Below are positions 3,152 through 60,158 of a stretch of DNA of 64,000 nt, in pieces. This DNA comes from Tepidanaerobacteraceae bacterium. Its GTDB lineage: Bacteria > Bacillota > Thermosediminibacteria > Thermosediminibacterales > Tepidanaerobacteraceae. The stretch lies in contig JANLFP010000012.1 in assembly GCA_024655905.1 (NCBI GenBank), positions 1 through 64,000 on the forward strand, in the 5' to 3' direction. Both the position numbers and the translations under genes were made by a program. The stretch's first letter is position 1. Every line of letters begins with the position of its first letter. The notes beneath the pieces were generated by a model, which did not search any database, was not told the DNA's origin, and worked only from the letters and a program-made list of their open reading frames with translations.

Positions 3152-3177
3152 AATACGTTAACATACTTGAAGGATAA

Positions 3178-4269
<1,092 letters not shown>

Positions 4270-4278
4270 GGTGATATC

Positions 4279-5235: not shown

Positions 5236-6004
5236 AGATATAAAAGAACTTTACAAATACAGAGAAATGCTTAAAAGCCTTGTAAAAAAAGACCTGAGGA
5301 CAAGATACAAAGGTTCGGTGCTGGGTTTTTTGTGGACATTCGTAAACCCCTTGCTGCAGCTTTTGGTGTACACCGTTATATTTTCTACAATAATGAGAAT
5401 CAACATAGATAAATACGCCATGTTCCTTTTTGTGGCACTGCTCCCCTGGATTTTCTTTTCCACGTCGCTGCAGACCAGCGCCGGCACAATAATATCCAAT
5501 AAGGATTTAGTGAAAAAAGTTTACTTTCCAAGAGAAGTGCTCCCTATATCCGTCGTCACCGGAGCGCTCATGAACCTTCTTTACAGCTTCGTCATACTAT
5601 TTCCGTGCCTAATAATATCCAGAATAGGCATAACTTCATCTATCATATACTTGCCCGTGGTCATACTGGTGGAATACGTTATCACACTGGCTTTTTCATT
5701 TTTGGCTGCTTCAATAAACGTTTATTTCAGAGATTTGGAACATCTGCTGGCAATCTTTCTGATGGCATGGTTTTACTTTACGCCCATAATATTCCCGGTA
5801 GAAATGATTCCAAAACAATATATTGTATACTTTTTTCTCAATCCCATGACACCCATTATCACCGCATTCAGAGACATTCTCTATTACGGTAAGGCGCCGG
5901 ACCTTGTCATGCTGGTGATTACGCTTATTTCAGGGCTGATGCTTGTCGTATTTGGATATGCTGTATTTAAAGCACTGCAGAAGAACTTTGCGGAGGAAAT
6001 ATAA
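5228..6004 (+). CDS. wzm: ABC-2 type glycan exporter, permease subunit
   Basis: 258 residues with an N-terminal amphipathic stretch (LYKYREMLKSLVKKDLRTRYKGSVLGFLW, here split in mind as LKSLVKKDL then RYKGSVLGFLW) and six hydrophobic segments, the layout of Wzm/TagG permeases. It would form a dimer in the membrane and, with the Wzt ATPase encoded next, move a finished lipid-linked glycan across. It starts at ATG 5228 inside the end of rmd, with GAGGGA upstream, so it is translationally coupled. The ATPase gene begins 1 nt after its stop. Confidence 0.92.
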   Translation: MIEDIKELYKYREMLKSLVKKDLRTRYKGSVLGFLWTFVNPLLQLLVYTVIFSTIMRINIDKYAMFLFVALLPWIFFSTSLQTSAGTIISNKDLVKKVYFPREVLPISVVTGALMNLLYSFVILFPCLIISRIGITSSIIYLPVVILVEYVITLAFSFLAASINVYFRDLEHLLAIFLMAWFYFTPIIFPVEMIPKQYIVYFFLNPMTPIITAFRDILYYGKAPDLVMLVITLISGLMLVVFGYAVFKALQKNFAEEI

Positions 6005-6005
6005 A

Positions 6006-7286
6006 ATGGACGTGATAAAAGTCAGCGACGTATGGAAAAAATTCAGAATCTATCATGACAGAGGCCTGACGCTGAAGGAAAAAATACTTTTCAGAAACCG
6101 GAATAAATTTGAAGATAGATGGGTTTTAAAAGGCATAAACCTGAATATAAAAAAAGGTGAAACCGTAGGCTTAATAGGTGAAAACGGTTCCGGCAAGAGC
6201 ACACTGCTCAAACTGCTGACCAAAATCATATATCCCAACAGGGGGCAGATAGAAATATACGGCAAGGTCTCCAGCCTCCTGGAACTGGGAGCGGGCTTTC
6301 ATCCCGATATGACCGGAAGAGAGAACATATACACAAATGCATCCATATTCGGGCTCACAAAATCGGAGATAGATAAAAAACTCGACGACATCATCGCATT
6401 CTCGGAACTTGAAGAATTCATAGACAACCCCGTCAGGACTTATTCCTCAGGCATGTACATGCGCCTGGCATTCTCGGTGGCCATAAATGTGGAACCCGAT
6501 ATACTGCTGATAGATGAAATACTCGCCGTTGGCGATGCCAATTTTCAGAAGAAATGTTTTGATAAACTCAAAGAATTTAAAAAAATCAATACCACCATAG
6601 TCATCGTGACCCATGACCTGGGAAGCGTTGAAAAACTGTGCGATAAAGCAGTATGGGTCCACGAAGGGGTTATTCAAGATAATGGAGAACCCAAAAAGGT
6701 CGTAGATGCTTATTTACAATTCATGAACCAAAAAAGGGAAGACATAGTTGAAAGAGAATATAGCAAAGAGGAGCAGGAAAGAAGCCCAAAATCAGAAGAA
6801 TTAGAGGAAATTCGACCGGGAGAAGCTCAGCCTGAACAATCCATGATTAACAATCAATGTGAACAGCGCTGGGGAAGCAGAGAAGTGGAAATAATCGATG
6901 TCAGAATGATAAATGAAAACAGTGAAACAAAACATTTCTTCACCTGTGGAGAAAAAGTTACTATACAAATATCATATAAAAAACACAAAGACATGGATGA
7001 ATATGTATTTGGGATTGGTATCTTCAATCAGGATGGAATCTCCTGTTATGGAACAAACACCTGTATAGATAAAATAAAGATAAATAAAATAAATCTTCAG
7101 GGAACGGTAGAATTTATAATCGAGGAACTTTTATTAGTTGAGGGAAGATACTCCCTGGATGTGGCCATTCATGCCGAAGACGGCCGGGCTTATGATTATT
7201 ATAGAAATGTGTATGAGTTTGAAATTGGATCAACCATTAAAGATGTTGGGATATGTCGATTGAAGCATGAATGGAATATAATGTAG
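6006..7286 (+). CDS. wzt: ABC glycan exporter, ATPase subunit with C-terminal carbohydrate-binding domain
   Basis: 426 residues. The nucleotide-binding domain covers about 1-245: Walker A GENGSGKST (58-66), signature YSSGM (146-150), Walker B LLIDE (167-171) and H-loop His203. A Glu-rich linker (about 246-285) leads to a beta-rich C-terminal domain of the Wzt_C type (about 290-426). In systems with such a domain the ATPase recognises the completed, often end-modified, chain before export. ATG 6006 follows GGAGG by 9 nt; longer in-frame starts lie inside wzm. By eye the base composition turns AT-rich where the linker and glycan-binding part begin, suggesting that this part came with the downstream cassette. 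Confidence 0.93.
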   Translation: MDVIKVSDVWKKFRIYHDRGLTLKEKILFRNRNKFEDRWVLKGINLNIKKGETVGLIGENGSGKSTLLKLLTKIIYPNRGQIEIYGKVSSLLELGAGFHPDMTGRENIYTNASIFGLTKSEIDKKLDDIIAFSELEEFIDNPVRTYSSGMYMRLAFSVAINVEPDILLIDEILAVGDANFQKKCFDKLKEFKKINTTIVIVTHDLGSVEKLCDKAVWVHEGVIQDNGEPKKVVDAYLQFMNQKREDIVEREYSKEEQERSPKSEELEEIRPGEAQPEQSMINNQCEQRWGSREVEIIDVRMINENSETKHFFTCGEKVTIQISYKKHKDMDEYVFGIGIFNQDGISCYGTNTCIDKIKINKINLQGTVEFIIEELLLVEGRYSLDVAIHAEDGRAYDYYRNVYEFEIGSTIKDVGICRLKHEWNIM

Positions 7287-7315
7287 TTTCTTTATATATA
7301 GGGAGGGAGAAAATC

Positions 7316-8854
7316 ATGGGGGATAATTTTGTTGTTGATGAAATTAAAAAAGACATAGAAGAAATTCTTGAAGCAAAGAGAAAACTTATGGGGATAAAGG
7401 ATGAAATTAATAATCCTGCTATTCCTATTCCAGAAAATGCATTACTGAATGAAATACATTGGAATCTTGAAAACGCCGTATCACAAGGCAATATAGATAT
7501 AAATCATATACCCGTGCATTCACACCGGCCCGTTATAGGATGGGCAATAACCTTTTTTAAGCGTGCAGTTAGAAAGAGCACATATTGGTTATATGAACCT
7601 TTATTTATTAAACTATCCGGTTTTAACTCATTGGTCTTAAATATTCTTAACAAACTTGTGAAGTACACTGAAGATGTTCAGCTCCACTTCAATAAACAAT
7701 TACAAGAAATAAGGGAAGAACGTGGACATGTTTTTAAAAAAGAAGTAGATATTATCGAACAAAAAATGTCTTCACTTCATGATTTATTCCTACAACTTGA
7801 AGAAGAATTAAATAAATATTATTCTTTTACAACGGCTAGTAAAGAAGAGATAACAAATGAGTTGAGTAATTTTAAAGAACTAGTAGAAACTTATAAATCA
7901 GAAATAAATAATGATAGAGCAAAAACAACAGATGAGATAGAGAACCTTAGAAAATTAATTGGTGACTATAAAATAGACGATGATATCCATCACTCTTCAA
8001 CAAAAGAAGATATAAATAAAATAAAAAATGAGATGAAGAATTTAAGAAATATGGTAGAAACTTATAGAGCTGAAGCCGCATTTTTACGTGCCAGGCTATC
8101 TGTATTATTGCAGCAAATAAAATCTGAGCGAAAGCCAATGCAGCTTACTAGGGATATAGAAAATAATTTATTAGTAGATATAGATGTCAATAAAATAATT
8201 AGTACTGACTGTATATATCACACTTTCGAACATTATTTCAGGGGAAGCGAAGATTTAATAAAAGAAAGGCAAAAAAAATATGTGATGGATATTAAAAAAG
8301 CTTATGATAAATGTGGTGGGTACATACTTGATATCGGCTCGGGAAGAGGGGAATTTTTAGAACTATGTAGTCAAGAGGGTATCTCCGCTAAAGGTGTAGA
8401 TATTAATGATGTTATGGTAGAGGATTGTCAAAAGAAAGGCCTTGATGTAATAAATGCTGATGGCATATCCTATTTAACTAATATTCCAGACGAAAGCCTA
8501 TGTGCCGTCACAGCATTTCAAGTTATAGAGCATTTAACACATGATCAATTACTCAGTCTATTACAGTTAGCCCTTCTTAAACTTAAACCAGGTGGAGTAA
8601 TTATTCTTGAAACTGTAAATGTTGATAGTATACTTTCACTAAAGAATTTTTATTCCGATTTAACTCATTTAAAGCCTATTCCCCCTGCTACTTTGCGTTT
8701 CCTTTTAGAGGCAGTGGGCTTTAAAAATGTCGATATAGTATATTCTTCGCCTGTACCAGATGATGTAAAACTTGCAGGAGAAGATGAAAACACAAGTAAA
8801 TTAAATATGCTCCTCTTCGGAGATCAAGACTATGCAGTAAAGGGGTGGCGCTAG
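7316..8854 (+). CDS. SAM-dependent methyltransferase with long N-terminal coiled coil (chain-terminator candidate)
   Basis: 512 residues. Residues about 120-270 are rich in heptad-like Glu/Lys/Leu/Ile and read as a coiled coil. A class I methyltransferase follows from about 330: motif I LDIGSGRGE (338-346), the acidic strand end KGVDIND, and VIEHL before KPGGVIILET. Coupling of a methyltransferase to a coiled coil next to wzm/wzt recalls WbdD, which caps the polymannan non-reducing end and measures chain length. No kinase domain is seen here, so a methyl cap is the more likely mark. ATG 7316 has GGGAGGGAG upstream. AT-rich, unlike the genes before it. Confidence 0.75.
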   Translation: MGDNFVVDEIKKDIEEILEAKRKLMGIKDEINNPAIPIPENALLNEIHWNLENAVSQGNIDINHIPVHSHRPVIGWAITFFKRAVRKSTYWLYEPLFIKLSGFNSLVLNILNKLVKYTEDVQLHFNKQLQEIREERGHVFKKEVDIIEQKMSSLHDLFLQLEEELNKYYSFTTASKEEITNELSNFKELVETYKSEINNDRAKTTDEIENLRKLIGDYKIDDDIHHSSTKEDINKIKNEMKNLRNMVETYRAEAAFLRARLSVLLQQIKSERKPMQLTRDIENNLLVDIDVNKIISTDCIYHTFEHYFRGSEDLIKERQKKYVMDIKKAYDKCGGYILDIGSGRGEFLELCSQEGISAKGVDINDVMVEDCQKKGLDVINADGISYLTNIPDESLCAVTAFQVIEHLTHDQLLSLLQLALLKLKPGGVIILETVNVDSILSLKNFYSDLTHLKPIPPATLRFLLEAVGFKNVDIVYSSPVPDDVKLAGEDENTSKLNMLLFGDQDYAVKGWR

Positions 8855-9903
8855 TGAAAATAGCCATAGCAACAGTACAGGTTCCTTTTGTTTATGGAGG
8901 AGCGGAATTTATGGCAAGAAATCTCAAGCAAGCATTGGAGAAAGTTGGTCATCAAGCAGAAATAATAACAATGCCTTTTAAATGGTATCCTCCTGAACGA
9001 ATACCGGAGCATATACTTGCGTCAAGATTGTTAGACATATCAGAAACCTGTGGAGAAAAAATAGATTTAATGATAGGTCTCAAGTTTCCTGCATATTATT
9101 TTAAACATTCGAATAAAGTTTTGTGGATATTACATCAACACCGTACTGCATATGACCTATGGCAAACAAAATATTGTGATTTAAATCAGACCTCAATTGG
9201 TTATAAAGTGAGAGATGCAATAATTAGTGCTGATAATATTTATATTAATGAAGCAAAAAAAATATTTACAATCTCTAATAATGTAAAAAACCGTTTACAA
9301 CGATTCAATAATATTTCTGCAACAACTTTATATCATCCTTGTCCGGAAGCAGAAAAATTTAACTGTGAAGCTTATGATAACTTTATATTATTTCCGAGTA
9401 GAATAAATGAAGTTAAACGTCAGTATTTAGCGATAGAAGCTATGAAATATATAAATTTACCTACAAAACTTTATATAATAGGAAATGCCGACAATCCATC
9501 ATACTTATTTAAAATAAAAAAAATGGTGAATCGATATGATTTGAGAGATAAAGTAATATTTAAAGATTTTATTTCCGAAGAAGAAAAGAGATTTTTTTAC
9601 GCTAATTGCAGAGCTGTTTTATTTCCACCTTTCGATGAAGATTATGGTTACATAACTCTTGAAGCATTTTATTCAAGCAAACCTGTTATAACCTGTGAAG
9701 ATAGCGGTGGTCCTCTCGAATTTGTTGAAGATAATGAGACTGGCTTTATCTGTAAACCAGATCCCAAAAGTATAGCTGAAGCTATAGATAAACTATCTGA
9801 TTCTGAAACTTTAGCGAAAACTATGGGTAATAAAGCTCGTGAAAAAATATTAAGTATGAATATAACATGGGATAATGTGGTAAAGGAGCTTACAAGTATA
9901 TGA
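8854..9903 (+). CDS. GT4-family glycosyltransferase
   Basis: 349 residues, GT-B fold. The N-terminal half begins with KIAIATVQVPFVYGGAE (donor/acceptor loop), the C-terminal half carries FPSRINEVKRQYLAIEA and the nucleotide-sugar binding EDYGYITLEAF segment with the E-x7-E spacing. A cytoplasmic retaining transferase acting on lipid-linked glycan is expected; the sugar donor cannot be read from sequence. GTG 8854 overlaps the TAG of the methyltransferase gene by one base and has AGGGG 8 nt upstream; GTG 8845 is possible. The next gene overlaps its stop by 4 nt. Confidence 0.82.
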   Translation: MKIAIATVQVPFVYGGAEFMARNLKQALEKVGHQAEIITMPFKWYPPERIPEHILASRLLDISETCGEKIDLMIGLKFPAYYFKHSNKVLWILHQHRTAYDLWQTKYCDLNQTSIGYKVRDAIISADNIYINEAKKIFTISNNVKNRLQRFNNISATTLYHPCPEAEKFNCEAYDNFILFPSRINEVKRQYLAIEAMKYINLPTKLYIIGNADNPSYLFKIKKMVNRYDLRDKVIFKDFISEEEKRFFYANCRAVLFPPFDEDYGYITLEAFYSSKPVITCEDSGGPLEFVEDNETGFICKPDPKSIAEAIDKLSDSETLAKTMGNKAREKILSMNITWDNVVKELTSI

Positions 9904-11213
9904 AAATAGCATGGTTCAGCCCATTGCCACCTTTAAAAACAGGAATAAGTGAATACAGTGAACTTATAGTTAAGACCTTAAAAAATTATGCACAAGTAGA
10001 TTTATGGGTAGATGGTTTTTCTCCTAGATGTGATTTTTACAAAGAATTTAAAGTGATTGATTATCATAACAAAACAGACATATTTCCATTACTAAGGTTA
10101 TACGACATAATCATTTATAATATGGGTAATAACGTCGAATTTCATAGTGGAATTTATGAAGTATTATGTAGATATCCAGGGATAGTCATACTTCATGATT
10201 ATGTTTTGCATCATTTTTTTGTCGGTTATTGGATTGATAAAAAGAAAGATGCTAATAGTTATTTTCAAAAGGTCAACAAATTGTATGGCTCAGATGTTGA
10301 ACAAGAAATAAAGAAAAGTATAAACCCGTTATCAAAACCGTTTTGGGAAACAGATAAAGTTTTTAACTATCCTCTTAATGAGGAAATATTAGATAAAGCG
10401 AAAGGAATAATAGTTCACTCAGAATTTGTTAATAATTTAATTAAAAATCATACGAAGGTTAAAATAATGACATTGAGTCACCCATTATTTTATTTACCCA
10501 AATTCAATAATACCTGTAAAAATATGCAGCTACCAAAAGAAAAAATAATATTGGCTTCAATGGGTTTCATATCACCAGTAAAAAGACTTGATAAAGTTTT
10601 AAAAGTTATTGCAAATAATCAATTTTTAAAAGAATGTACATTTATGATCATAATAGGTGAAAACGTATATCCTGATTATGATTTAAAAGACTATATTAAT
10701 AAATATAGATTGAATAGTAATGTAAAACTGTTGGGTTATTTACCACTTAATGAAGCTTACGAGTACCTAAACTGCTCAGATATCTGCCTAAACTTAAGAT
10801 ATCCAACAATGGGAGAAACAAGTGGAAGTCTAATTAGAATAATGTCATTGGGAAAACCCACAATCGTTACTAATATCGGCTGGTATTCAGAGATACCGGA
10901 TGGTTGTGCAATTAAGATCGATCCTGAAAAAGAGGAACAACAACTTACTAATGCTTTAATTAATCTTGTTAAAGATAAAGATCTGCGGAAAACAATTGGT
11001 GAAAATTCGAAAAAATATATATATGAAAATAATAATCCAGAAAAATTCGTTCAAGGTTTATTAAAGTTTATTAGTGAAGTTAATTTAAATAATATTAATA
11101 TATATTATAAACTTATTGACAATATTACAGATACTCTAATGATATTAAATTATGGAAGCGATAAATTAATCTCAAATATTTCGGAAAATTTAAGTTGGTG
11201 TATTCAAAAATAA
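9900..11213 (+). CDS. GT4-family glycosyltransferase
   Basis: 437 residues, starting with KIAWFSPLPPLKTGISEYSE, a pattern common in bacterial GT4 enzymes of surface-glycan clusters. The donor-binding half contains ASMGFISPVKRLDKVL, LLGYLPLNEAYEYL and LRYPTMGETSGSLIRIMSLGKP, in which the Glu and Gly-Ser stretch sits where the family binds the nucleotide diphosphate. ATGA overlap with the previous gene shows translational coupling. The last about 50 residues are Asn/Ile-rich and lie outside the recognised fold. Donor unknown. Followed by 200 nt of AT-rich DNA with no gene. Confidence 0.82.
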   Translation: MKIAWFSPLPPLKTGISEYSELIVKTLKNYAQVDLWVDGFSPRCDFYKEFKVIDYHNKTDIFPLLRLYDIIIYNMGNNVEFHSGIYEVLCRYPGIVILHDYVLHHFFVGYWIDKKKDANSYFQKVNKLYGSDVEQEIKKSINPLSKPFWETDKVFNYPLNEEILDKAKGIIVHSEFVNNLIKNHTKVKIMTLSHPLFYLPKFNNTCKNMQLPKEKIILASMGFISPVKRLDKVLKVIANNQFLKECTFMIIIGENVYPDYDLKDYINKYRLNSNVKLLGYLPLNEAYEYLNCSDICLNLRYPTMGETSGSLIRIMSLGKPTIVTNIGWYSEIPDGCAIKIDPEKEEQQLTNALINLVKDKDLRKTIGENSKKYIYENNNPEKFVQGLLKFISEVNLNNINIYYKLIDNITDTLMILNYGSDKLISNISENLSWCIQK

Positions 11214-11416
11214 TTATATATGGGTATATTATTATATATAAATGATAATTGAAATTATTCCGTGATCAAATATATTAATATTGTGTCTACCAATACTTAC
11301 AAAAAATTATACAATATTATAATAAAACAATGCAGTAGATTAATAGAGCTGTGAAGAAGTTGCTGAGATTAACATCGTGGGTGGTTTAATTTTAACATTT
11401 GGAGATTAGATTAATA

Positions 11417-13945
11417 ATGACTAAAACGAAGGTTTTTTCTAATAATAAAATTAATAATGATATAATATACATAATACTAATTATTCTGTATATATTTTTT
11501 TCTATGATACCTCTTTTAAAAAGTGGGTATTATGGAGATGATGCTATAAATTCTTATACAAAAGGAATTATCAACTTTGAAAAAGAATCACTTTTTTCAT
11601 TTACACGTTATTATATGTTTAGTTGGATAGAAACAGGACGTTTCTTCCCACTTGCATGGTATTTATATACTTTATTCTATTATATTGATAATATTATATA
11701 TTATAAAGCATTTATATTAGCATTTATATTAATTGATATTTACACTTTTTACTGTTTTATAAAAATATTATCCAAAAATGATCATCTTGCTAAAATAATG
11801 ATAATAACTTTGCCCGTGCTTTTTCAATTTAGATTATATCATGATCCGATATTGTCATATCATATTTTAATGGAGTTGTTATTGTTTTACCTTTTTATTT
11901 CATTAATTTTTTTGATTAAGTTTTTACAAAGCAAGAAGATAGTTTACTTGTGCATAAGTATTTTATTTTATAATCTTGCTTTATATACATATGAAATATC
12001 ATACTTATTTTTTATTATCCATTTTATTTTGATTTTATATATTTCTAAAAATATTAAATTAACTTTGCAAAATGTATCACCCTTCTTTTTTTCTACACTT
12101 ATAGCTTTTATTATAACAATTTATTTTAGAACTAAAGCAAATGTCATTTCTGAAGCTTATACAATGAATTTTAATTTAGTAGTATATTTAAAAACTGTTA
12201 TAAAGCAAATATTTTCATCAATGCCATTAAGTTATTTTATTTTTAATTTTTCAACAGTATTTAACTTTACTTTGAAGAATTTTATAAATAATATAAGTAC
12301 GAATGACATCATCATGTGGTTTTTATTAATTTATTTATTTTATACCTTGGTAAAAAGATTAAACGAACAAATAGATTATAAAATATTGATATTAATAGGT
12401 ATATCGTTTATTATTTTACCTAGTTTAATGATTTCTTTTTCTCCAAAATATCAACAAGAGATTGTTTGGGGTATAGGATATTTACCTGTTTACATCCAAT
12501 ATTTTGGAACTGTAATGTTTTTAATCGGAATTATTATATGGCTATATTATCATATTAAGAATTTAAAGTTAAAGCTGTTTATTAAAGTTATTTTATTGTT
12601 GACTTTAACATTAATAGCATTAATAAATATCCAAAATAACAGAACTATCGTTGAAAAATTTAACTTAACTATGCATTATCCCAGAGTTATATTAGAAGAA
12701 GCTTTAAAGAATGGATTAACGGAAGATATTCCTGAGGACTCAACAATATTAATAGATAGTAATAATATTTGGGATAACAAATATTTTTTTTACATGATAA
12801 CAAATAAACGATTCAATGTTATAAATATAAAAGATTATGTTGAGGATATTGATAAAAAAGATCAAGCATATTATAAAAATCTAAGTGATAAACATATCTA
12901 CATAGTAAAATATACATCTAATAAAATAAATGATGGTTATGTCTTATTAGGTAAAATCAAAGATATTTTTTATGATTCTCAAAGTTATAATGAACTTCAA
13001 ATAAATATCGATCAATTAAAAATATTTCTTTTAGATAAAGAAAATAAGTATAAATCAATAATTGGTAAAACACTTTGGAATAATCAAAAACGATATGAGA
13101 TTACACTGTTACCCATAAACGGACATGGCTTAAATTCATTACAGTTAGATAACCGTTGCATAGAATTTAATTCTATTGGATTTAGTTCTATTAGTCTTAC
13201 TGGATATAATAATTTAAATTATGCAAATCCCGACGAAAAAAGGCTAAGTAAAACTTTACTAAAAATAAATCAGAAATCATTGATTCATTGTAGGTTTACA
13301 GATAATCGAATAGTTTTTAATGCTATAAATAATAAAAATATTGGTATTAATAATTGTAAAATTGTTAACGGTATTAGCGGACAAGCGGCTTTTTTTAGGG
13401 GTGATGTTAACGATTTAATAACATTACACAAAATTAATTTAAGTCAACGTTTTACTGTAGAAATGATTTTATATCCCTTTGAAAAAAATTTAAATTATGC
13501 TTGTCTAATAGGAAATCATCCCGGTTTTAATGATTATGAAGGATTCGTTATACAACAAAATGGAAGTTTAGAACCTAATACTTATGTTTTTAGTGCAGGA
13601 GATGGGGAATCATGGATGCAACCCATAAATGACTCAAGCTTTTTCTTAGAACCAAATAAATTTCATTATCTATGCGTAGTTTTTAATAACTTAAACGTGA
13701 AAATCTATGATAACGGCAAAATGGTAAAGGATGTGAAATATAAAGGCAAAGCCTTAAAACAAAGTGAAATGCCGCTTATTATAGGTAATTGGATTAATAG
13801 AGATAGACCATTTAATGGGATTATTGAGGAAGTAAGAATTTCAGATGATATAATGAACAGTAGATATATATTACAAAATTATGATGATATAAAAAACAAA
13901 TTTAAAGATGTTGAAATAAATAAAAGTGATATTTTATATGAATAA
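11417..13945 (+). CDS. Large polytopic membrane protein with C-terminal LamG-like domain
   Basis: 842 residues. About eleven hydrophobic segments fill residues 15-420, with an early loop YYGDDAINSYTKG holding Asp pairs like those of GT-C polyprenyl-phosphate-sugar glycosyltransferases. The rest is soluble: a mixed region (430-620), then a jelly-roll of the LamG/concanavalin type (about 640-820) with FTVEMILYPFEK, KFHYLCVVFNN, VKIYDNGK and GIIEEVRISD. I infer an enzyme that glycosylates or modifies glycan outside the cell using a lipid-linked donor, with the LamG part binding sugar. Function not proven. ATG 11417 has GGAG 12 nt upstream; TTG 11399 is an alternative. Confidence 0.65.
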   Translation: MTKTKVFSNNKINNDIIYIILIILYIFFSMIPLLKSGYYGDDAINSYTKGIINFEKESLFSFTRYYMFSWIETGRFFPLAWYLYTLFYYIDNIIYYKAFILAFILIDIYTFYCFIKILSKNDHLAKIMIITLPVLFQFRLYHDPILSYHILMELLLFYLFISLIFLIKFLQSKKIVYLCISILFYNLALYTYEISYLFFIIHFILILYISKNIKLTLQNVSPFFFSTLIAFIITIYFRTKANVISEAYTMNFNLVVYLKTVIKQIFSSMPLSYFIFNFSTVFNFTLKNFINNISTNDIIMWFLLIYLFYTLVKRLNEQIDYKILILIGISFIILPSLMISFSPKYQQEIVWGIGYLPVYIQYFGTVMFLIGIIIWLYYHIKNLKLKLFIKVILLLTLTLIALINIQNNRTIVEKFNLTMHYPRVILEEALKNGLTEDIPEDSTILIDSNNIWDNKYFFYMITNKRFNVINIKDYVEDIDKKDQAYYKNLSDKHIYIVKYTSNKINDGYVLLGKIKDIFYDSQSYNELQINIDQLKIFLLDKENKYKSIIGKTLWNNQKRYEITLLPINGHGLNSLQLDNRCIEFNSIGFSSISLTGYNNLNYANPDEKRLSKTLLKINQKSLIHCRFTDNRIVFNAINNKNIGINNCKIVNGISGQAAFFRGDVNDLITLHKINLSQRFTVEMILYPFEKNLNYACLIGNHPGFNDYEGFVIQQNGSLEPNTYVFSAGDGESWMQPINDSSFFLEPNKFHYLCVVFNNLNVKIYDNGKMVKDVKYKGKALKQSEMPLIIGNWINRDRPFNGIIEEVRISDDIMNSRYILQNYDDIKNKFKDVEINKSDILYE

Positions 13946-51790: not shown

Positions 51791-53689
51791 ATGCACAATA
51801 GAATAAGAAAGATTATATTGTTTTTTCTGGATGCAGGTATGATAATCCTGTCTTTATTTTTTTCATTTATGCTTCGATTTGAGTGGAAGATTCCGGTAGA
51901 GTATATTGGCCAGTTGAAAGAAACTGTTTTTCCTGTAGTTTTAATTATTCTTGCATGTTTTTACATATTTAATTTATATGATAGGTTGTGGCGGTACGCC
52001 AGTATAAATGAACTCATTTCCATTGTTCTTGCCACGTTTTTCGGTACGTTTTCGGTTCTATTTTATACTTTTATAACCGGCAATATGTATCCCCGCAGTA
52101 TCTACATACTTTTCTGGCTGCTTTTGACTGCCGTGGTTGGAGGTGGCCGTTTTATTTTGCGCAGCTACAGCACGGTTATTCCTTCATTTAAAAAGGTGAA
52201 CGGCACAAAGAACATCATGGTGATCGGTGCCGGGGAAGCCGGTTCGATGGTGATAGAGGAGTTTATAAAGCATCCGGAGCTGAAAATGAGGCCCGTGGCT
52301 ATAATAGATGACGACTCTAGAAAGCACGGCATGATGATTCACGGAATAAAGGTAGAAGGCGGCAGGAGGGATATACTTGAAGTTGCTTTGAGGAAAAACG
52401 TGCACGAAATAGTGATTGCCATGCCGTCCATCGACAGGAAGGAGATCAAGGATATTGTCCAGATATGCAGGAAGACCGAATGCAGGCTGAAGATTCTGCC
52501 GGGGGTGTATGAGCTTCTGGATGGTAAGGTGAGCATTAAGAGGCTGCGGGATGTGAATATCGAGGATCTGCTGGGCAGGGAACCGGTAAAGGTAGATTTG
52601 GAAGAGGTTTCGGGCTATATAAAGGATAAGATGGTGCTGGTGACCGGAGGAGGAGGGTCCATTGGTTCGGAGCTCTGCCGCCAGATAGCTGCTTTCAATC
52701 CCAAAAGTTTGTTAATATTTGACATAAATGAGAACAATATCTATGATCTTGAGTATGACCTGAAAGTATCATACCCCGACCTTAAATATATGGCGCTGAT
52801 AGGGGATATCAAGGATGTTTCGAGGGTGAATTATGTATTTGAAAGGTACAAGCCCGATGTGGTATTTCATGCGGCAGCTCACAAACATGTGCCTCTGATG
52901 GAATTAAACCCCACCGAAGCCATTAAAAATAACGTCTTCGGGACGTTGAACGTAGCAGAGGCGGCGGATAAATATGGTACGGAAAGGTTCATACTCATTT
53001 CCACCGACAAGGCGGTAAATCCAGTCAACATCATGGGAGCTTCCAAGAGGATAGCCGAGATAATAATCCAGATGATGGCGAAGAAAAGCAGCACCATCTT
53101 TGCTGCGGTGCGATTCGGCAACGTGCTGGGCAGCAACGGCAGCGTGGTGCCCCTTTTTAAGAAACAGATTCAGATGGGCGGCCCTGTGACGGTAACCCAT
53201 CCGGATGTAACCAGATATTTTATGACCATCCCGGAAGCGGTCCAGCTGGTCATACAGGCAGGGTCTATGGCCTCAGGCGGGGAAATTTTCGTGCTGGACA
53301 TGGGCGAGCCGGTGAAGATAGTGGACCTTGCAAGAGAGATGATAAAGCTTTCCGGACTGGAGCCCGATGTGGATGTGAAGATACAGTTTACGGGCCTCAG
53401 GCCGGGAGAAAAGCTTTTCGAGGAATTACTGTTAAAGGAAGAAGGGTTTTCGGCGACGAAGTACAAAAAGATATATATAGCAAAGCCTGCCATGAATGAT
53501 GTATCGGCTTTTCTAAAGGAACTGAATGATTTGAAAGAGATACTGTTCAGCCCGGACTACGGAAAACTTGAAAAAGCCGTAAAAAGGCTCGTTCCAAATT
53601 ACAGCAGCGACAAAAGACAAAGCGATTGGGTAAATGTAAAGGAGGCTCCAAATAATGAAGATTTCTCTTTCGAAGCCGGATATAACTGA
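51791..53689 (+). CDS. Membrane-bound UDP-GlcNAc 4,6-dehydratase, PglF/CapD-like
   Basis: 632 residues: four membrane helices (about 8-125), a first Rossmann domain (about 140-260, IMVIGAGEAGSMVI), and the catalytic SDR domain from about 285 ([65 protein letters not shown]). The Tyr-to-Met change (MGASK) is normal for this group. Product is UDP-4-keto-6-deoxy-GlcNAc for the PglE-like enzyme. Base composition is AT-rich over the first about 300 nt and GC-richer afterwards. Bases 53048-53266 recur, mutated, at 59705-59924. Confidence 0.92.
   Translation: MHNRIRKIILFFLDAGMIILSLFFSFMLRFEWKIPVEYIGQLKETVFPVVLIILACFYIFNLYDRLWRYASINELISIVLATFFGTFSVLFYTFITGNMYPRSIYILFWLLLTAVVGGGRFILRSYSTVIPSFKKVNGTKNIMVIGAGEAGSMVIEEFIKHPELKMRPVAIIDDDSRKHGMMIHGIKVEGGRRDILEVALRKNVHEIVIAMPSIDRKEIKDIVQICRKTECRLKILPGVYELLDGKVSIKRLRDVNIEDLLGREPVKVDLEEVSGYIKDKMVLVTGGGGSIGSELCRQIAAFNPKSLLIFDINENNIYDLEYDLKVSYPDLKYMALIGDIKDVSRVNYVFERYKPDVVFHAAAHKHVPLMELNPTEAIKNNVFGTLNVAEAADKYGTERFILISTDKAVNPVNIMGASKRIAEIIIQMMAKKSSTIFAAVRFGNVLGSNGSVVPLFKKQIQMGGPVTVTHPDVTRYFMTIPEAVQLVIQAGSMASGGEIFVLDMGEPVKIVDLAREMIKLSGLEPDVDVKIQFTGLRPGEKLFEELLLKEEGFSATKYKKIYIAKPAMNDVSAFLKELNDLKEILFSPDYGKLEKAVKRLVPNYSSDKRQSDWVNVKEAPNNEDFSFEAGYN
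53048..53266 (+). repeat. Intact source copy of the pglF segment duplicated at 59705
   Basis: About 219 nt inside the pglF-like gene align to 59705-59924 with scattered substitutions (mostly third-base) and one extra G in the second copy. The alignment starts at AGGATAGCCGAG in both. Confidence 0.9.
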
Positions 53690-54797
53690 AAAAGAGATAG
53701 ATGTGGTAGCTGAAGTACTGAGGTCGGGCATTTTGAGCATCGGCCCAAAAATAGTCGAATTTGAAGAAAAATTCGCCGGGTATATAGGTGTAAAACATGC
53801 GGTGGCGGTAAACAGCGGCACCAGCGGCCTGCACCTTTTGGTAAAGGCGCTGGATATAAAAGAGCAAGATGAAGTTATTACCACGCCTTTCAGCTTTATT
53901 GCATCTTCCAACTGCATATTGTTTGAGAGGGCAAAGCCTGTCTTTGTGGATATTGATCCTCATTCATTGAATCTGGACATAGATCTGATAGAGTCCAGAA
54001 TAACCGAAAAGACGAAGGCGATCCTGGCGGTGGATGCCTTCGGCCATCCGGTGGATATAAAGAAGATAAGGCAAATCGCAGAAAAATACGGTTTAAAAGT
54101 CATCGAAGATGCTTGTGAAGCCGTGGGCTCGGAGTATGACGGTATAAAGGCCGGAAGCATGGCGGACGGTGCGGTCTTTGCCTTCTATCCCAACAAGCAG
54201 ATGACCACCGCCGAAGGCGGGATGATTGTTACCAATGATGATGAAGTTGCGGAACTTTGCAGGAGCCTGAGGAGCCAGGGCAGGGCTGTGACGGGCCTGT
54301 GGCTGGAACATGAGAGGCTGGGCTACAATTACAGGATGAGCGAACTCCACGCCGCCCTGGGGATTGTCCAGTTGGAAAGGCTCGATGAATTCATCCGAAA
54401 GCGGGCTCTTGTGGCGGAAAAATACAATCAGAGATTCAAAGACGTTGAAGGGGTAAGGGTGCCTTATATAGATAAAAAGGTCACCAGGATGAGCTGGTTT
54501 GTATATGTGATACAACTCGATTCTTCCATAGACAGGAACAAAGTCATGAAGCATTTGCTGGACAGCGGAATAGGCTGCCGCCCCTACTTTACTCCCATAC
54601 ATCTGCAGCCTTTTTACAGAGAAATGTTCGGCTACAAACCCGGCGATTTTCCCGTAACCGAACGTATCGCCTCCTCCACCATCTCCCTCCCCTTTCACAA
54701 CAACCTCTCTGACGAAGAAATAGACTACGTGGTGGAAAAGGTGAGGGAAGGGATAGAGAAGTTCGGGGGGGAGGAAAGAATGATTTTTTCTGGATAA
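53655..54797 (+). CDS. DegT/DnrJ-family PLP aminotransferase, PglE-like
   Basis: 380 residues. TPFSFIASSNCILFE, DAFGHPVDIKKI, EDACEAVGSEYDG and FYPNKQMTTAEGG (Lys binds PLP) define the sugar aminotransferase group. It would turn the PglF-like product into a UDP-4-amino sugar. It overlaps the previous gene by 35 nt. The C-terminal residues after EKFGG (EERMIFSG) seem to be an extension: the duplicated copy at 60090 stops right after EKFGG, so the original end was probably there and the present end came from joined island DNA. Confidence 0.92.
   Translation: MKISLSKPDITEKEIDVVAEVLRSGILSIGPKIVEFEEKFAGYIGVKHAVAVNSGTSGLHLLVKALDIKEQDEVITTPFSFIASSNCILFERAKPVFVDIDPHSLNLDIDLIESRITEKTKAILAVDAFGHPVDIKKIRQIAEKYGLKVIEDACEAVGSEYDGIKAGSMADGAVFAFYPNKQMTTAEGGMIVTNDDEVAELCRSLRSQGRAVTGLWLEHERLGYNYRMSELHAALGIVQLERLDEFIRKRALVAEKYNQRFKDVEGVRVPYIDKKVTRMSWFVYVIQLDSSIDRNKVMKHLLDSGIGCRPYFTPIHLQPFYREMFGYKPGDFPVTERIASSTISLPFHNNLSDEEIDYVVEKVREGIEKFGGEERMIFSG
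54607..54769 (+). repeat. Aminotransferase 3' end, direct repeat with 59927-60090
   Basis: About 163 nt from CAGCC(T/C)TTTTACAG to GTTCGGGGG are found again at 59927-60090 in the same orientation with few changes. The two copies flank the nuclease/helicase island. Confidence 0.9.
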
Positions 54798-55162
54798 GCC
54801 CATTCCTTTTACAAATACATGGTGTATCTAAAGCATATTATGAGCCTGACGAAGAGCTATCCGATAGGATAGAAGAAGGTTTCGGAGAAATCTACTTCAG
54901 GGTTCCCAGGATAACGCCATCTGCAGGTTATGATGTAATGTTAGAATTTGCAGAAACAGTTGCTTCATCAAAGATAAGGCAAAGACTTTATAAGGCATTA
55001 AACGGGTCCAAAAAAGTATTCAGAAGGTTCAAAGATGTTCTAGATGACTATCCAGAAGAACGAGACCGCTATTATAAATTCCTCAGAAAATACTGCGAAG
55101 AACAGATAATACAGTGGCTGAAAGAGGAAGATATAGATATGGAAATGACAATAGACGATTGA
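54798..55162 (+). pseudogene. 5'-truncated UPF0158-family gene
   Basis: The frame ending at 55162 stays open back through 54798 into the aminotransferase gene without a start codon of its own; the first ATG is 54938. Its product reads SDRIEEGFGEIYFRVPRIT, then FAETVASSKIRQRLYKALNG, FRRFKDVLDDYPEERDRY and EEQIIQWLKEEDIDME, which is the UPF0158 pattern. The N-terminal about 25-30 residues normally present are replaced by the junction. A translated fragment from 54938 (74 aa) is possible. It marks the left edge of the island. Confidence 0.7.
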
Positions 55163-55239: not shown

Positions 55240-55309
55240 ATATTCTTGTTTGATTCATTAAGAATATAGTATTTGTAAAAAAATTGCTATAAATGTAAAG
55301 GGGATAAAA

Positions 55310-56182
55310 ATGCCTGGTTTTGTCTGCAAAAAGAGAGGAATAATAAATGGCTTCGAGGTCGCTCTTTTTGAATTAGATACAAATAATCAAATAGAAGAAA
55401 TGTCAAAGTTAGAAGAACATTTAAAGAACAAAATTAGGAAAATGAAATTGCATAATCCTGATGAATATAGGGCCTTACTTCAAGTTCCGGGAGTAATCGA
55501 AAATGAATTTATGGAAAAAATATTAGCTCATATTAAAAGAATAAATATTCCATCAAAAAATAAAAATCAATGGTTTGACGTAAGAAGAAGTAGGGTAACC
55601 GAATTTATGGCGCAATGCCTGCTAGAGAGAGAATATAACTGCATTTTTTATGAGGCAGCAGATAAAAGAATTAATACAGATGTTGTCAATAGGGATAAGC
55701 ATACGCCAGGCATCGATGTCACAGGAATTTATCATAATAATAAAGACTTTAAATTTGTTGCTTGCGAAGTCAAGGCTTCTAAAGGGGATATTCCATGCGA
55801 AGAGGCAAAATCACTTCTGACTGATATATATAAAGGATATACTAATGAAGAAGAAAGATTATCCAAAGACATATTACAGTATTATAATGATTTGAGTGCG
55901 GCTCAAATAGATGATATTTTAATAAAAGATATATTAGGTTTTTTAATTAAACTTATAAATGTTTCATCTTCTCATGAAGAACTTATAAAAAATGTTATAT
56001 TTATCCCCTTTTTAATTAGATATAACCCTAAAATTATAGAACATAATACACTTGAAGATTTTGCGGAGTTCAGGATAGAAGATATGAAGGGAATCGATAT
56101 AAAGGGCGTTATATGGGCTTTTAATAAAGATATAAATACTTTTGCTAATGATTTATATGATGAGGTGCTGGCCAATGGTTAA
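55310..56182 (+). CDS. PD-(D/E)XK nuclease-like protein, HamA-like (DUF1837 type)
   Basis: 290 residues, soluble. A nuclease core is visible: Glu98 in a helix, Asp136 in TPGIDVTGIY, and Glu153/Lys155 in VACEVKASKG, i.e. E...D-x16-E-x-K. The gene is followed at once (8-nt overlap) by a large Ski2-like helicase. Nuclease plus helicase in this order is the Hachiman (HamA/HamB) or AbpA/AbpB layout, where the helicase senses phage DNA and releases the nuclease. Family identity is inferred from layout and motif, not from close similarity. AAAGGGGA precedes ATG 55310. AT-rich island gene. Confidence 0.65.
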   Translation: MPGFVCKKRGIINGFEVALFELDTNNQIEEMSKLEEHLKNKIRKMKLHNPDEYRALLQVPGVIENEFMEKILAHIKRINIPSKNKNQWFDVRRSRVTEFMAQCLLEREYNCIFYEAADKRINTDVVNRDKHTPGIDVTGIYHNNKDFKFVACEVKASKGDIPCEEAKSLLTDIYKGYTNEEERLSKDILQYYNDLSAAQIDDILIKDILGFLIKLINVSSSHEELIKNVIFIPFLIRYNPKIIEHNTLEDFAEFRIEDMKGIDIKGVIWAFNKDINTFANDLYDEVLANG

Positions 56183-59100
56183 ATCTTATAATGATATAAT
56201 AATTAATTTGGCCAACATATTAGACAAAAAATCTGGTGATGTGGCTGAAGTCATAAAACTTCTGGAAAAATGTGAAGTAGATGGCTTGAAACAACTATTG
56301 GACGAAACTTTTGTTCCCCACATTTCATCTGATAATTATAGAGATATTTCTTTGAAGCTGGATGCTATTTCATCTTTAATATACATACTACATCATAATC
56401 CGAAGTTAAATAATACTACAGCAAAAATAAAAGGCGAAAACGGCAAAGACATTCTAAAAACACTGTATCATGTGGCATTTGACCTAAGCATAAATAAATT
56501 TAATTTAAAAAAAGAAATGCCGGATATTGAACGTCTTTTTGTACTTACATTAGTCTCATTTTATGGTATATTAGATGATAAGCAGACGATTAGCGATATT
56601 TTTATAAAAAAATATATTGATGACCTGACAAAATCTGTTTCACACGAAGAAAACCTTATAAAAAGGCTTGAAGCTTTTACATATATTGCCTTGATAAATT
56701 TAACAATAAAGATAGACAGTAAAAGTGCTTTAGATAATTTAGATAGAGTAATAAATGACGTGGAGTATATGCTTGGCTTGGTGCAACAATCAGAAATCGA
56801 AAAAGAAAGTATAGATATGGAAAAGGCATTTCTTATTGCCGGATTGGCAAACATCATATATATTACAAAAATAGTTAAGACTTACCTTTTTACAGGGAAA
56901 GTTGAAAGTGATGAACGTGCTAATGTATATTCATATATTGACAAATATTGTTATAATGCCAATAAATTATTAAAAGAAACTAATGAAGAGAGCATCAAGA
57001 AGATAGCAAATTTACTTAAATATACATTAGAGCAAATTTGTAGAAACTCTATTTGGTCTTTTGCGGATCGTTCGCCTGTTATTAAAAAATTCTTTATTAA
57101 AAGTCTTGAATCAGAGGAAGATTTTATATATACATTATTACCTTCACAGCGAGATTCTATATTGGATATTTTAACAGCCAAAAGAAGCATAGTTATAAAT
57201 ATGCCTACAAGTTCCGGGAAATCACTATTAGCCGAATTATACATCCTTTTCACTATGCATAATTATAGAATGGAAGGTTTTGAACCTACGGCATGTTATG
57301 TTGTACCAACCAATGCATTAATTAATCAGGTTAATAAAAAATTAAAAGAAGATTTTGCTGGTTTCAATTTCACTATAGAAACGGTTTTACCTTTTTATGA
57401 TATTGATGAAATAGAGGCAAATATCCTCAATTTAAAACATATTCATATTTTGATTACCACACCAGAAAAACTTGATCTTTTAATTAGGCAGGGACATCCC
57501 GCGTTAAATAATTTAAAGCTTATTATTCTGGACGAGGCGCATAATATAGCAGACAAAGAAAGAGGTTCAAAGTTCGAGCTTTTATTAGCGTTGATTAAAC
57601 AAAAACGCAGAGATGTAAATTTTTTCCTTATGAGTCCTTTTATTAAGAATGCGGATAAAATAGCTGAATGGCTGGGCGATACTCAACAAGATTCGAAGAT
57701 GATATCACTGCAGTGGTCACCTACCAAACAGTATATAGGATGCAATTTATTAAAAAATAATAAAAATAAAAGTGTAGTAGTTTATTATCCTTCTCCAAGC
57801 AATAATATTATAAAGGAAAAGGTCGAGGTTCTGGTAAATCCAAACATAAAAAAATTGAAGGATTATCTTGGTGAAAAATCGGTTAACAAATATGTAAAAA
57901 ATATTGCTTTAATAGAAAAATATATTAAAATAGGTAGTGTTTTAATATTGTGTGAAGGTCCCGGCACATGTGAAAAGATGGCAAAGAAATGCTATGAATA
58001 TTTAAAGGATACTGGCCTGCTGTGTGATAATAGCGAAAATAAGGAAATTAAAAAAGCAATAGAGCTTATAAGATTAGAAACGACTGAAAATAACCCATTG
58101 GCAGATTATATAACAAGGGGTATAGCGTATCATCATGCCAGAATGTCATCTCTTGTAAAGGAAGAGATTGAAAATCTTATAAACAGTGGTCTGATAAAAA
58201 TTATATGTGCAACTACTACATTGGCGCAAGGCATGAACTTTCCAATAACAACAGTTATTTTTAGCACTGTCACATTTAGAAATGAGCATAATGAAGATAA
58301 AAATGAGTATGATGAAGAAGATAATCTATTAACAAATGCCCAATTTTGGAACATTGCAGGCAGGGCCGGAAGAGCGTATAAGGATAAAGAGGGCCATATA
58401 ATTACCCCATTTTTTAATGTTTCACAGAAAAAGACAGTAGAAATAATTGAAAGATATATAAAAGGCGGTATAGAGGAAATATCGTCAACTTTGGCGGATT
58501 TTTTTAATAAGGTGGGAGATTATGTAGATTTTAATCATAAACTTATTGAAAAAAATGTTGCTGCATCCAATTTTTTGCAGTATTTAAATCACATTGTAAA
58601 TGTAGCATATGACTATAATATTAATAACATCGATATTTCAGCAATAAGAAGCATATTGGATACATCATTGTTTTACAAAGAGCAAGAATACGAACAGGGT
58701 TTTATAGAGGTTCAGGATAAAATTAATAGATTTGCTAGAAAATATATTGAACATCTGCAAAAACATGATAAGAGTTCTCTTAAAACAGCGGATAAATTTG
58801 GAATAAGTGACATAAGTTATAGGACCTTTAAAAAAGTACTAAATGATTTTATTAAATCAGTTTATCTGGAACATGGAAAAGAAAAGGCAGATGAATTTAT
58901 TAAAGTATCAAATATAATATTAAAGTCGCAAAATTATTATAGGCTTGCAGATGTCATTAAGATAATATCAAAAATTCCGGAAATAAAATTGGGTATGTTT
59001 GAGCATGGTTCATTAAATTCTGAAAATATCGCAAAAGTAATTATTGGGTGGGTAAATGGGAAAAAAGTAAGTGAGATAGCAAAAGAAATCAAATATGATG

Positions 59101-59477
59101 GAGATTTTGATGAAATACTGGGAAAATGCTATCAATATATAAATGGAAGACTTAAATCGTTTGTACCATGGGGTATCTCCCTATATCAATATTTGACTCA
59201 TGATACCGATGGGGAACATTCCCAAAATCTGCCATCATACATTTATTATGGCGTTAATAATGTGGAATCAGTTATATTATCAAAAGTCGGGGTTCCACGC
59301 TTTGCAATAAATCAGGTTAAAGAAAAATTAAAAAAACAATACCCAGATACTGAGATTACTATAAAAAACATAGAAAAAATTAAACACCATATAAAAAATC
59401 TTATTTATGAAAATAAGGACTTTGAAGGGAAAGATATAAAGCTGATAAAAGAGATTATAGATAGCGGAATATATTGA
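56175..59477 (+). CDS. Superfamily 2 (Ski2-like) DEAH helicase, HamB-like
   Basis: 1100 residues. A helical N-terminal region of about 320 residues without known motifs precedes two RecA domains: motif I MPTSSGKS (343-350), CYVVPTNALINQV (Ia), motif II DEAH (453-456), LMSPF (III), TTLAQGMNFP (V) and AGRAGR (728-733, VI). The last about 330 residues are helical. The order and size match HamB-type defence helicases. ATG 56175 has GAGGTG 9 nt upstream and overlaps the nuclease gene. Together they form a two-gene defence candidate; phage activity is inference. Confidence 0.75.
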   Translation: MVKSYNDIIINLANILDKKSGDVAEVIKLLEKCEVDGLKQLLDETFVPHISSDNYRDISLKLDAISSLIYILHHNPKLNNTTAKIKGENGKDILKTLYHVAFDLSINKFNLKKEMPDIERLFVLTLVSFYGILDDKQTISDIFIKKYIDDLTKSVSHEENLIKRLEAFTYIALINLTIKIDSKSALDNLDRVINDVEYMLGLVQQSEIEKESIDMEKAFLIAGLANIIYITKIVKTYLFTGKVESDERANVYSYIDKYCYNANKLLKETNEESIKKIANLLKYTLEQICRNSIWSFADRSPVIKKFFIKSLESEEDFIYTLLPSQRDSILDILTAKRSIVINMPTSSGKSLLAELYILFTMHNYRMEGFEPTACYVVPTNALINQVNKKLKEDFAGFNFTIETVLPFYDIDEIEANILNLKHIHILITTPEKLDLLIRQGHPALNNLKLIILDEAHNIADKERGSKFELLLALIKQKRRDVNFFLMSPFIKNADKIAEWLGDTQQDSKMISLQWSPTKQYIGCNLLKNNKNKSVVVYYPSPSNNIIKEKVEVLVNPNIKKLKDYLGEKSVNKYVKNIALIEKYIKIGSVLILCEGPGTCEKMAKKCYEYLKDTGLLCDNSENKEIKKAIELIRLETTENNPLADYITRGIAYHHARMSSLVKEEIENLINSGLIKIICATTTLAQGMNFPITTVIFSTVTFRNEHNEDKNEYDEEDNLLTNAQFWNIAGRAGRAYKDKEGHIITPFFNVSQKKTVEIIERYIKGGIEEISSTLADFFNKVGDYVDFNHKLIEKNVAASNFLQYLNHIVNVAYDYNINNIDISAIRSILDTSLFYKEQEYEQGFIEVQDKINRFARKYIEHLQKHDKSSLKTADKFGISDISYRTFKKVLNDFIKSVYLEHGKEKADEFIKVSNIILKSQNYYRLADVIKIISKIPEIKLGMFEHGSLNSENIAKVIIGWVNGKKVSEIAKEIKYDGDFDEILGKCYQYINGRLKSFVPWGISLYQYLTHDTDGEHSQNLPSYIYYGVNNVESVILSKVGVPRFAINQVKEKLKKQYPDTEITIKNIEKIKHHIKNLIYENKDFEGKDIKLIKEIIDSGIY

Positions 59478-59704
59478 TATATATGTGATATATATGTTGC
59501 CAGGGGTATTAATGGAGTTACTGACAACCTTTAAATAGAAACAATTGATACATATTAAACTGTTAAAGGGGAATAGGGATTGTTAAAATGCCTATATGAA
59601 TAATTAGGTGAATTACCTTGGGATAATATTAATTTTTCTGCACAGGCTTTGATAGCTTTAAAACCAAATCATATTGAAAAGAAATGGCAGGCATTGTTGG
59701 CTAC
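59478..59704 (+). other. Gap with gene debris
   Basis: No full gene. An in-frame piece at about 59606-59705 reads LGELPWDNINFSAQALI then KKWQALLAT without start or family match, and looks like remains of an unknown gene. The join to the duplicated pglF segment is at 59705. Confidence 0.4.
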
Positions 59705-60090
59705 AGGATAGCCGAGATAATAATCCAAATGATGGCCAAAAAAAGCAGCACCATCTTTACTGCGGTGCGGTTCGGCAATGTGCTGGGCAGCAATGGGCAG
59801 TGTGGTGCCCCTTTTTAAAAAGCAGATTCAAATGGGCGGTCCTGTGACGGTGACCCATCCTGATGTGACCAGATATTTTATGACCATCCCGGAGGCGGTC
59901 AAGCTGGTCATACAGGCGGGTTCTCTCAGCCCTTTTACAGAGAAATGTTCGGCTACAAACCCGGCAATTTCCCCGTAACCGAGCGCATCGCTTCTTCCAC
60001 CATCTCCCTCCCCTTTCACAACAACCTCTCCGACGAAGAAATAGACTATGTGGTGGAAAAGGTGAGGGAAGGGATAGAGAAGTTCGGGGG
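59705..60090 (+). repeat. Second copy of two separate segments of the pglF/aminotransferase genes
   Basis: 59705-59924 pairs with 53048-53266, and 59927-60090 with 54607-54769, both as direct repeats. Together with the intact genes they bracket 54798-59704, which supports island entry by duplication or recombination between related ends. Confidence 0.88.
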
Positions 60091-60094
60091 ATGA
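59705..60094 (+). pseudogene. Chimeric remnant of pglF-like and aminotransferase genes
   Basis: 59705-59924 repeats an inner part of the pglF-like gene, with one inserted G near 59800 that shifts the frame. At 59925-59927 it jumps to the aminotransferase 3' end and continues to a TGA at 60092-60094. The about 1.34 kb between these parts in the intact copy are missing. No function is possible. It keeps what seems to be the original aminotransferase stop (EKFGG then TGA). Confidence 0.9.
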
Positions 60095-60158
60095 GGAAAT
60101 AATTTCATTCAAATTTTTATTTTTGTCGAGATGTGTCGGAATATTTTTAATGTTTGAG

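What the first reader, a model, noticed from the sequence alone, without database searches (positions are those of the whole stretch)
55310..59477. Hachiman-like two-gene defence candidate with divergent nuclease
A D-x16-E-x-K nuclease gene overlaps a 1100-residue Ski2-like helicase with a long uncharacterised N-terminal region. Layout equals HamA/HamB, but the nuclease sequence is not an evident close homologue, so this may be a new branch.
Basis: partly seen in the sequence, partly recalled or inferred. Interest (0 to 1): 0.65.

Follow-up and report, generated by a model that had tools for sequence, protein, structure and literature searches.

The report
Divergent Hachiman-like nuclease–helicase gene pair
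Two overlapping bacterial genes encode a predicted DNA-cutting enzyme and a helicase that are distant relatives of the Hachiman anti-virus system; they belong to an outlying branch of a group so far listed only as an untested defence candidate (PDC-M23), so the pair probably protects the cell from phages by destroying DNA, but nobody has tested it.

Summary
Gene A (55310-56182, 290 aa) carries D136-x16-E153-x-K155. Gene B (ATG 56175-59477, 1100 aa) overlaps it by 8 bp and is a Ski2/Hel308-type helicase with a ~300-residue helical N-terminal region. A hits no Pfam HamA/DUF1837 or PADLOC HamA model; its only PADLOC hit is PDC-M23A (3.6e-9). B hits PDC-M23B (9e-154) far better than HamB (1e-63), and HamB is its best solved relative. 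A's closest distant relative (G039, 23-28% identity) matches both PDC-M23A and Pfam HamA above cut-off. Profile alignment of A with HamA scores 49.7, against at most 19.2 for 100 shuffles. Across 16 A/HamA proteins the only invariant residues besides Met1 are E98, D136 and K155; E153 is Glu or Gln. A helicase tree puts B in the PDC-M23 clade (100/99), outside its core. Whether that clade lies inside or beside Hachiman is unresolved (AU p=0.21). Both genes are under purifying selection (dN/dS 0.10, 0.14). PDC-M23 pairs sit within type I RM loci and beside CBASS, BREX and type III CRISPR. Verdict: an outlying lineage of the untested PDC-M23 candidate, homologous to Hachiman and probably working like HamAB. 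No phage effect has been shown.

The parts
55310..56182 (+). gene A, 290 aa, predicted PD-(D/E)XK nuclease, divergent HamA / PDC-M23A relative
55601..55603 (+). E98 codon, invariant in 16 A/HamA proteins
55715..55717 (+). D136 codon, invariant, predicted metal ligand
55766..55774 (+). E153-V154-K155, the ExK motif, equivalent to HamA E138/K140
   Evidence: HamA residues from PMC12278908
56175..59477 (+). gene B, 1100 aa from ATG (open from TTG 56142), Ski2/Hel308-type helicase, PDC-M23B / HamB relative
56175..57074 (+). N-terminal ~300 residues of B, predicted all-helical; last ~90 residues resemble the end of the HamB N-terminal helical region
57204..57224 (+). motif I PTSSGKS (K349)
57531..57542 (+). 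motif II DEAH
59705..60096 (+). scar after the cassette: fused internal pieces of a wbpM-like and a degT-like gene, right-hand boundary of the A-B cassette

Best explanation
A and B form a HamAB-type two-protein antiphage system, an outlying lineage of the PADLOC candidate PDC-M23. B, a Ski2/Hel308-type DNA helicase, would patrol DNA and hold the nuclease A in check through its N-terminal helical region. When B engages DNA ends or other aberrant structures produced by a replicating phage, ATP-driven movement would activate A. A would then cut DNA through a metal-dependent E98/D136/E153/K155 site, clearing phage and host DNA (abortive infection). Shown here: the gene pair, motifs, homology, purifying selection and defence neighbourhoods. 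Inferred from HamAB (PMC12278908): complex formation, trigger, nuclease release and cell death.
For: PADLOC: A hits only PDC-M23A 3.6e-9; B hits PDC-M23B 9e-154 and HamB 1e-63. Best PDB relative of B is HamB 8vx9_B, 1.2e-31. The intermediate G039 A (blastp E 4.7e-8 to A) hits PDC-M23A 6e-14 and Pfam HamA 5.5e-8, over cut-off. hhalign of A with HamA: prob 90, score 49.7; with PDC-M23A: prob 96, score 65.1; shuffled-column controls reach at most 19.2 and 22.8. E98, D136 and K155 invariant, E153 Glu or Gln, in 16 A/HamA proteins. Helicase tree: B in a 14-member PDC-M23 clade, 100/99. dN/dS 0.10 and 0.14. Relatives in the same A-then-B order lie after hsdM and before hsdS (L018) or hsdR (L070), after BrxL (L071), after type II CBASS (L059), and before a type III-C operon (C15 of the same genome). 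The low-confidence model of A ranks HamA second in the PDB, with the highest probability (0.44) of the matches listed.
Against: A alone does not hit PF08878 or any HamA model. The A-HamA profile alignment covers only ~105 of 290 residues. The AlphaFold models are poor (pLDDT 39.5 and 41.2). B's N-terminal match to HamB covers only ~95 columns. No PDC-M23 member is known to me to have been tested, and no held paper names PDC-M23. Another PADLOC candidate, PDC-M63, showed no defence in its native host (PMC12409345).
Confidence: 0.72

Rival explanations
1. A-B is a defence pair but with another logic: a restriction-like or helper module of whatever defence operon it sits in (type I RM, CBASS, BREX, type III CRISPR), with a trigger other than DNA ends.
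For: PDC-M23 pairs lie between hsdM and hsdS or hsdR, after BrxL, next to CBASS, and both pairs of this genome lie upstream of type III effector operons on the same strand.
Against: The partner systems differ from genome to genome. The window pair is separated from cmr1 by a 770-bp stretch with a pseudogene scar, and its 94% identical sister has no cmr genes beside it. A conserved helicase-nuclease pair with its own catalytic sites suffices by itself.
Confidence: 0.15
2. A DNA repair or processing nuclease-helicase pair with no defence role.
For: B's helicase core also resembles Hel308 (7e-50) and Ski2/Brr2 helicases.
Against: Patchy occurrence: PDC-M23A in 6 of 299 genomes of the phylum, two unrelated pairs in one genome, a cassette bounded by recombination scars, and repeated defence neighbourhoods.
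Confidence: 0.08
3. A decaying or silent remnant.
For: It sits among pseudogene scars (59705-60096, 54827-55162).
Against: Both frames are intact, all catalytic motifs are kept, and dN/dS is 0.10 and 0.14.
Confidence: 0.05

Closest known systems
PADLOC candidate PDC-M23 (PDC-M23A + PDC-M23B)
   Same: Gene order, sizes and invariant catalytic residues; B matches over nearly its full length (9e-154) and groups with the PDC-M23 clade at 100/99 support.
   Different: The window pair is outside the 8-member core clade; B scores 512 bits against 1137 or more for the full-length core members found in this phylum; A matches only the N-terminal half of the PDC-M23A model (27-158 of 290).
Hachiman (HamA + HamB; E. 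coli ECOR31 complex, PDB 8VX9)
   Same: Two-gene A-then-B operon, D-ExK nuclease site at aligned positions, Ski2-type helicase, helical N-terminal region before the helicase core.
   Different: A has no detectable PF08878 domain on its own (about 16% identity to L061 HamA, which matches the PDB HamA chain); motif II is DEAH, where HamB is reported with DEGH; the trees separate PDC-M23B from ECOR31-type HamB.
AbpAB
   Same: Nuclease plus Ski2-type helicase; AbpA has a HamA-like domain (PMC12278908, PMC10732053).
   Different: AbpA has an extra N-terminal Cap4-like nuclease and a dead HamA site; AbpB is shorter (729 aa).

Membership tests
Hachiman (HamAB) | HamA domain (PF08878/DUF1837) detectable in the nuclease | tested here: not met
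   No hit for A at E<=1 and no window-genome hit in the PF08878 scan. Met only indirectly, through G039 A and profile alignment.
Hachiman (HamAB) | D-E-x-K catalytic residues at the HamA positions | tested here: met
   D136, E153, K155 aligned with HamA in 16 sequences; HamA residues from PMC12278908.
Hachiman (HamAB) | Ski2-like helicase HamB with intact motifs | tested here: met
Hachiman (HamAB) | N-terminal helical bundle of HamB that binds HamA | tested here: inconclusive
   All-helical prediction (low confidence); profile match to HamB N-termini over the last 95 columns only.
Hachiman (HamAB) | Helicase falls inside the HamB clade | tested here: inconclusive
   The best tree nests PDC-M23B among HamBs, but HamB as a separate clade is not rejected (AU p=0.206).
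Hachiman (HamAB) | Damage-triggered DNA degradation and phage protection | not testable with these tools
   Needs experiments.
PDC-M23 | B matches PDC-M23B better than any other model | tested here: met
   9.1e-154 against 1.1e-63 for HamB; tree support 100/99.
PDC-M23 | A matches PDC-M23A | tested here: met
   3.6e-9, but only over 27-158; hhalign E 6.6e-9.
AbpAB | Cap4-like nuclease domain fused N-terminally to an inactive HamA domain | tested here: not met
   A is 290 aa with the active-site residues kept and no second domain hit.

The most novel reading that the evidence does not exclude
PDC-M23, including this outlying lineage, is a separate immune system from Hachiman that is functionally wired to the defence operon beside it (here type III CRISPR, elsewhere type I RM, BREX or CBASS), for example firing when the primary system is breached.
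Probability: 0.1. Interest if true: 0.65.

Novelty: new variant of a known kind. Interest (0 to 1): 0.42.

Why it matters
It ties an anonymous defence candidate (PDC-M23) to a system with a solved mechanism (Hachiman). That gives direct, testable predictions (residues K155 and K349, a damage trigger, DNA loss) and shows that HMM-based defence callers can miss divergent HamA-type nucleases. Comparing lineages with almost no shared sequence except E, D and K could show which part of HamAB is essential for holding the nuclease in check.

Tried and rejected
AlphaFold2 of A and of B with the four-sequence alignments allowed gave low-confidence models. The fold search of A put HamA second in the PDB, but without a significant E-value, so it serves only as weak support. 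Protein scans for A found nothing in plasmids or viral contigs, and only one 94% relative in genome contigs. Phage-record hits of B are short, weak matches, mostly to other helicases. The idea that the pair is a fixed accessory of type III CRISPR was set aside because the sister pair has no cmr genes next to it. Pfam hits of A to GUCT and DUF4358 are below cut-off. Promoter scan hits do not exceed shuffles. Three literature searches found no paper naming PDC-M23 or describing a divergent HamA of this kind.

Full report
Observation. Gene A runs 55310-56182 (+), 290 aa, with a good ribosome-binding site, and carries D136-x16-E153-x-K155. A 94% (A) and 95% (B) identical pair lies in a second genome of the same family (L005/G362, a Thermoanaerobacterales MAG); dN/dS is 0.10 and 0.14, so both genes are kept by selection.

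Family searches. PADLOC gives A only PDC-M23A (3.6e-9 over residues 27-158) and no HamA model. B hits PDC-M23B at 9.1e-154 and HamB at 1.1e-63. Pfam finds no HamA domain in A, and in B the DEAD and Helicase_C domains. NCBIfam places B's core nearest Hel308-type helicases, far below their cut-offs. The best solved relative of B is HamB of the E. coli Hachiman complex, 8vx9_B. A search of 388 genomes of the phylum with PF08878 does not find A.

Linking A to HamA. The closest distant pair, in genome G039 (L025), has an A protein that blastp matches to the window A at 4.7e-8, that hits PDC-M23A at 6e-14 together with several HamA models, and that passes the curated Pfam HamA cut-off (33.4 bits against 25). 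hhalign of the window group with six HamAs scores 49.7 (prob 90), and with core PDC-M23A 65.1 (prob 96). One hundred column-shuffled controls reach at most 19.2 and 22.8. In a 16-protein alignment the only invariant residues besides Met1 are E98, D136 and K155, with E153 replaced by Gln in two rhizobial plasmid proteins. In HamA the equivalent E138/K140 are required for defence (PMC12278908). The residues are shown here; their catalytic role is inferred.

B. The helicase motifs are intact and shared with all PDC-M23B relatives. The N-terminal 300 residues are predicted helical (low confidence), and their last ~90 residues match HamB N-termini at profile level (E 4e-6, prob 87). In HamB this N-terminal helical bundle holds HamA (PMC12278908), so an equivalent role is plausible but not shown.

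Phylogeny. A 22-helicase tree splits HamB from PDC-M23B at 100/100. With nine more helicases from PF08878-positive loci and an outgroup, PDC-M23B (14 members, 100/99) nests among HamBs in the best tree, but a separate HamB clade is not rejected (AU p=0.206). The window pair groups with L005 and, less surely, with G156 (88/95), outside the 8-member core PDC-M23 clade. So 'new branch of Hachiman' is fair only as 'outlying branch of PDC-M23, which is itself a relative or sub-lineage of Hachiman'.

Surroundings. Downstream lie cmr1 and cmr2 of a type III-B CRISPR operon, but 770 bp away across a scar made of wbpM and degT pieces. The cassette 55250-59702 is 94% identical in DNA to L005, where it is followed by a wbpM-like gene and not by cmr genes. 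This suggests the cassette moved by recombination between polysaccharide genes. A second, core PDC-M23 pair sits on contig 15 of the same genome, immediately before a type III-C (Csx11) operon. Elsewhere PDC-M23 pairs lie after hsdM and before hsdS (L018) or hsdR (L070), after BrxL and after type II CBASS. That fits the 'guilt-by-embedding' origin of PADLOC's PDC list described in PMC12988326.

Mechanism. The best-supported model is a HamAB-like sensor helicase controlling an effector nuclease. Shown: gene pair, motifs, homology, selection and defence context. Inferred: complex, trigger, DNA degradation and abortive infection. Novelty: the kind is known (Hachiman) and the group is listed (PDC-M23), though I know of no test of it. 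The lineage is divergent enough that PF08878 and the PADLOC HamA models miss the nuclease.

Noticed in passing
L017 (contig 15 of the window's genome), 676-13278: A second, core-type PDC-M23 pair directly upstream of a type III-C CRISPR effector operon (Cmr1-like RAMP, Cmr6-like RAMP, Csx11, Cmr4-like), so both pairs of this genome precede type III operons.
   Followed up: partly
window 59705-60096 and 53048-54769: Scar of fused wbpM-like and degT-like fragments (91-95% identical to the intact genes upstream) marks the right edge of the A-B cassette.
   Followed up: yes
window 54827-55162: Remnant of a UPF0158 protein (PF03682, 5e-9) between degT and gene A.
   Followed up: partly
L059 6779-7633, L060 6338-7198: Rhizobial plasmid A proteins with QxK in place of ExK; L059 lies directly after a type II CBASS operon.
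   Followed up: partly
L107 2433-3920: HamA with an N-terminal TIR domain (PF13676, 3.5e-11) next to a HamB-like helicase, a TIR-HamA fusion.
   Followed up: partly
L018 6028-15237, L070 2553-11999: PDC-M23 pairs lying inside type I restriction loci, after hsdM and before hsdS or hsdR.
   Followed up: yes
L071 2849-8985: PDC-M23 pair directly after a BREX brxL gene on an IMG/VR contig.
   Followed up: no
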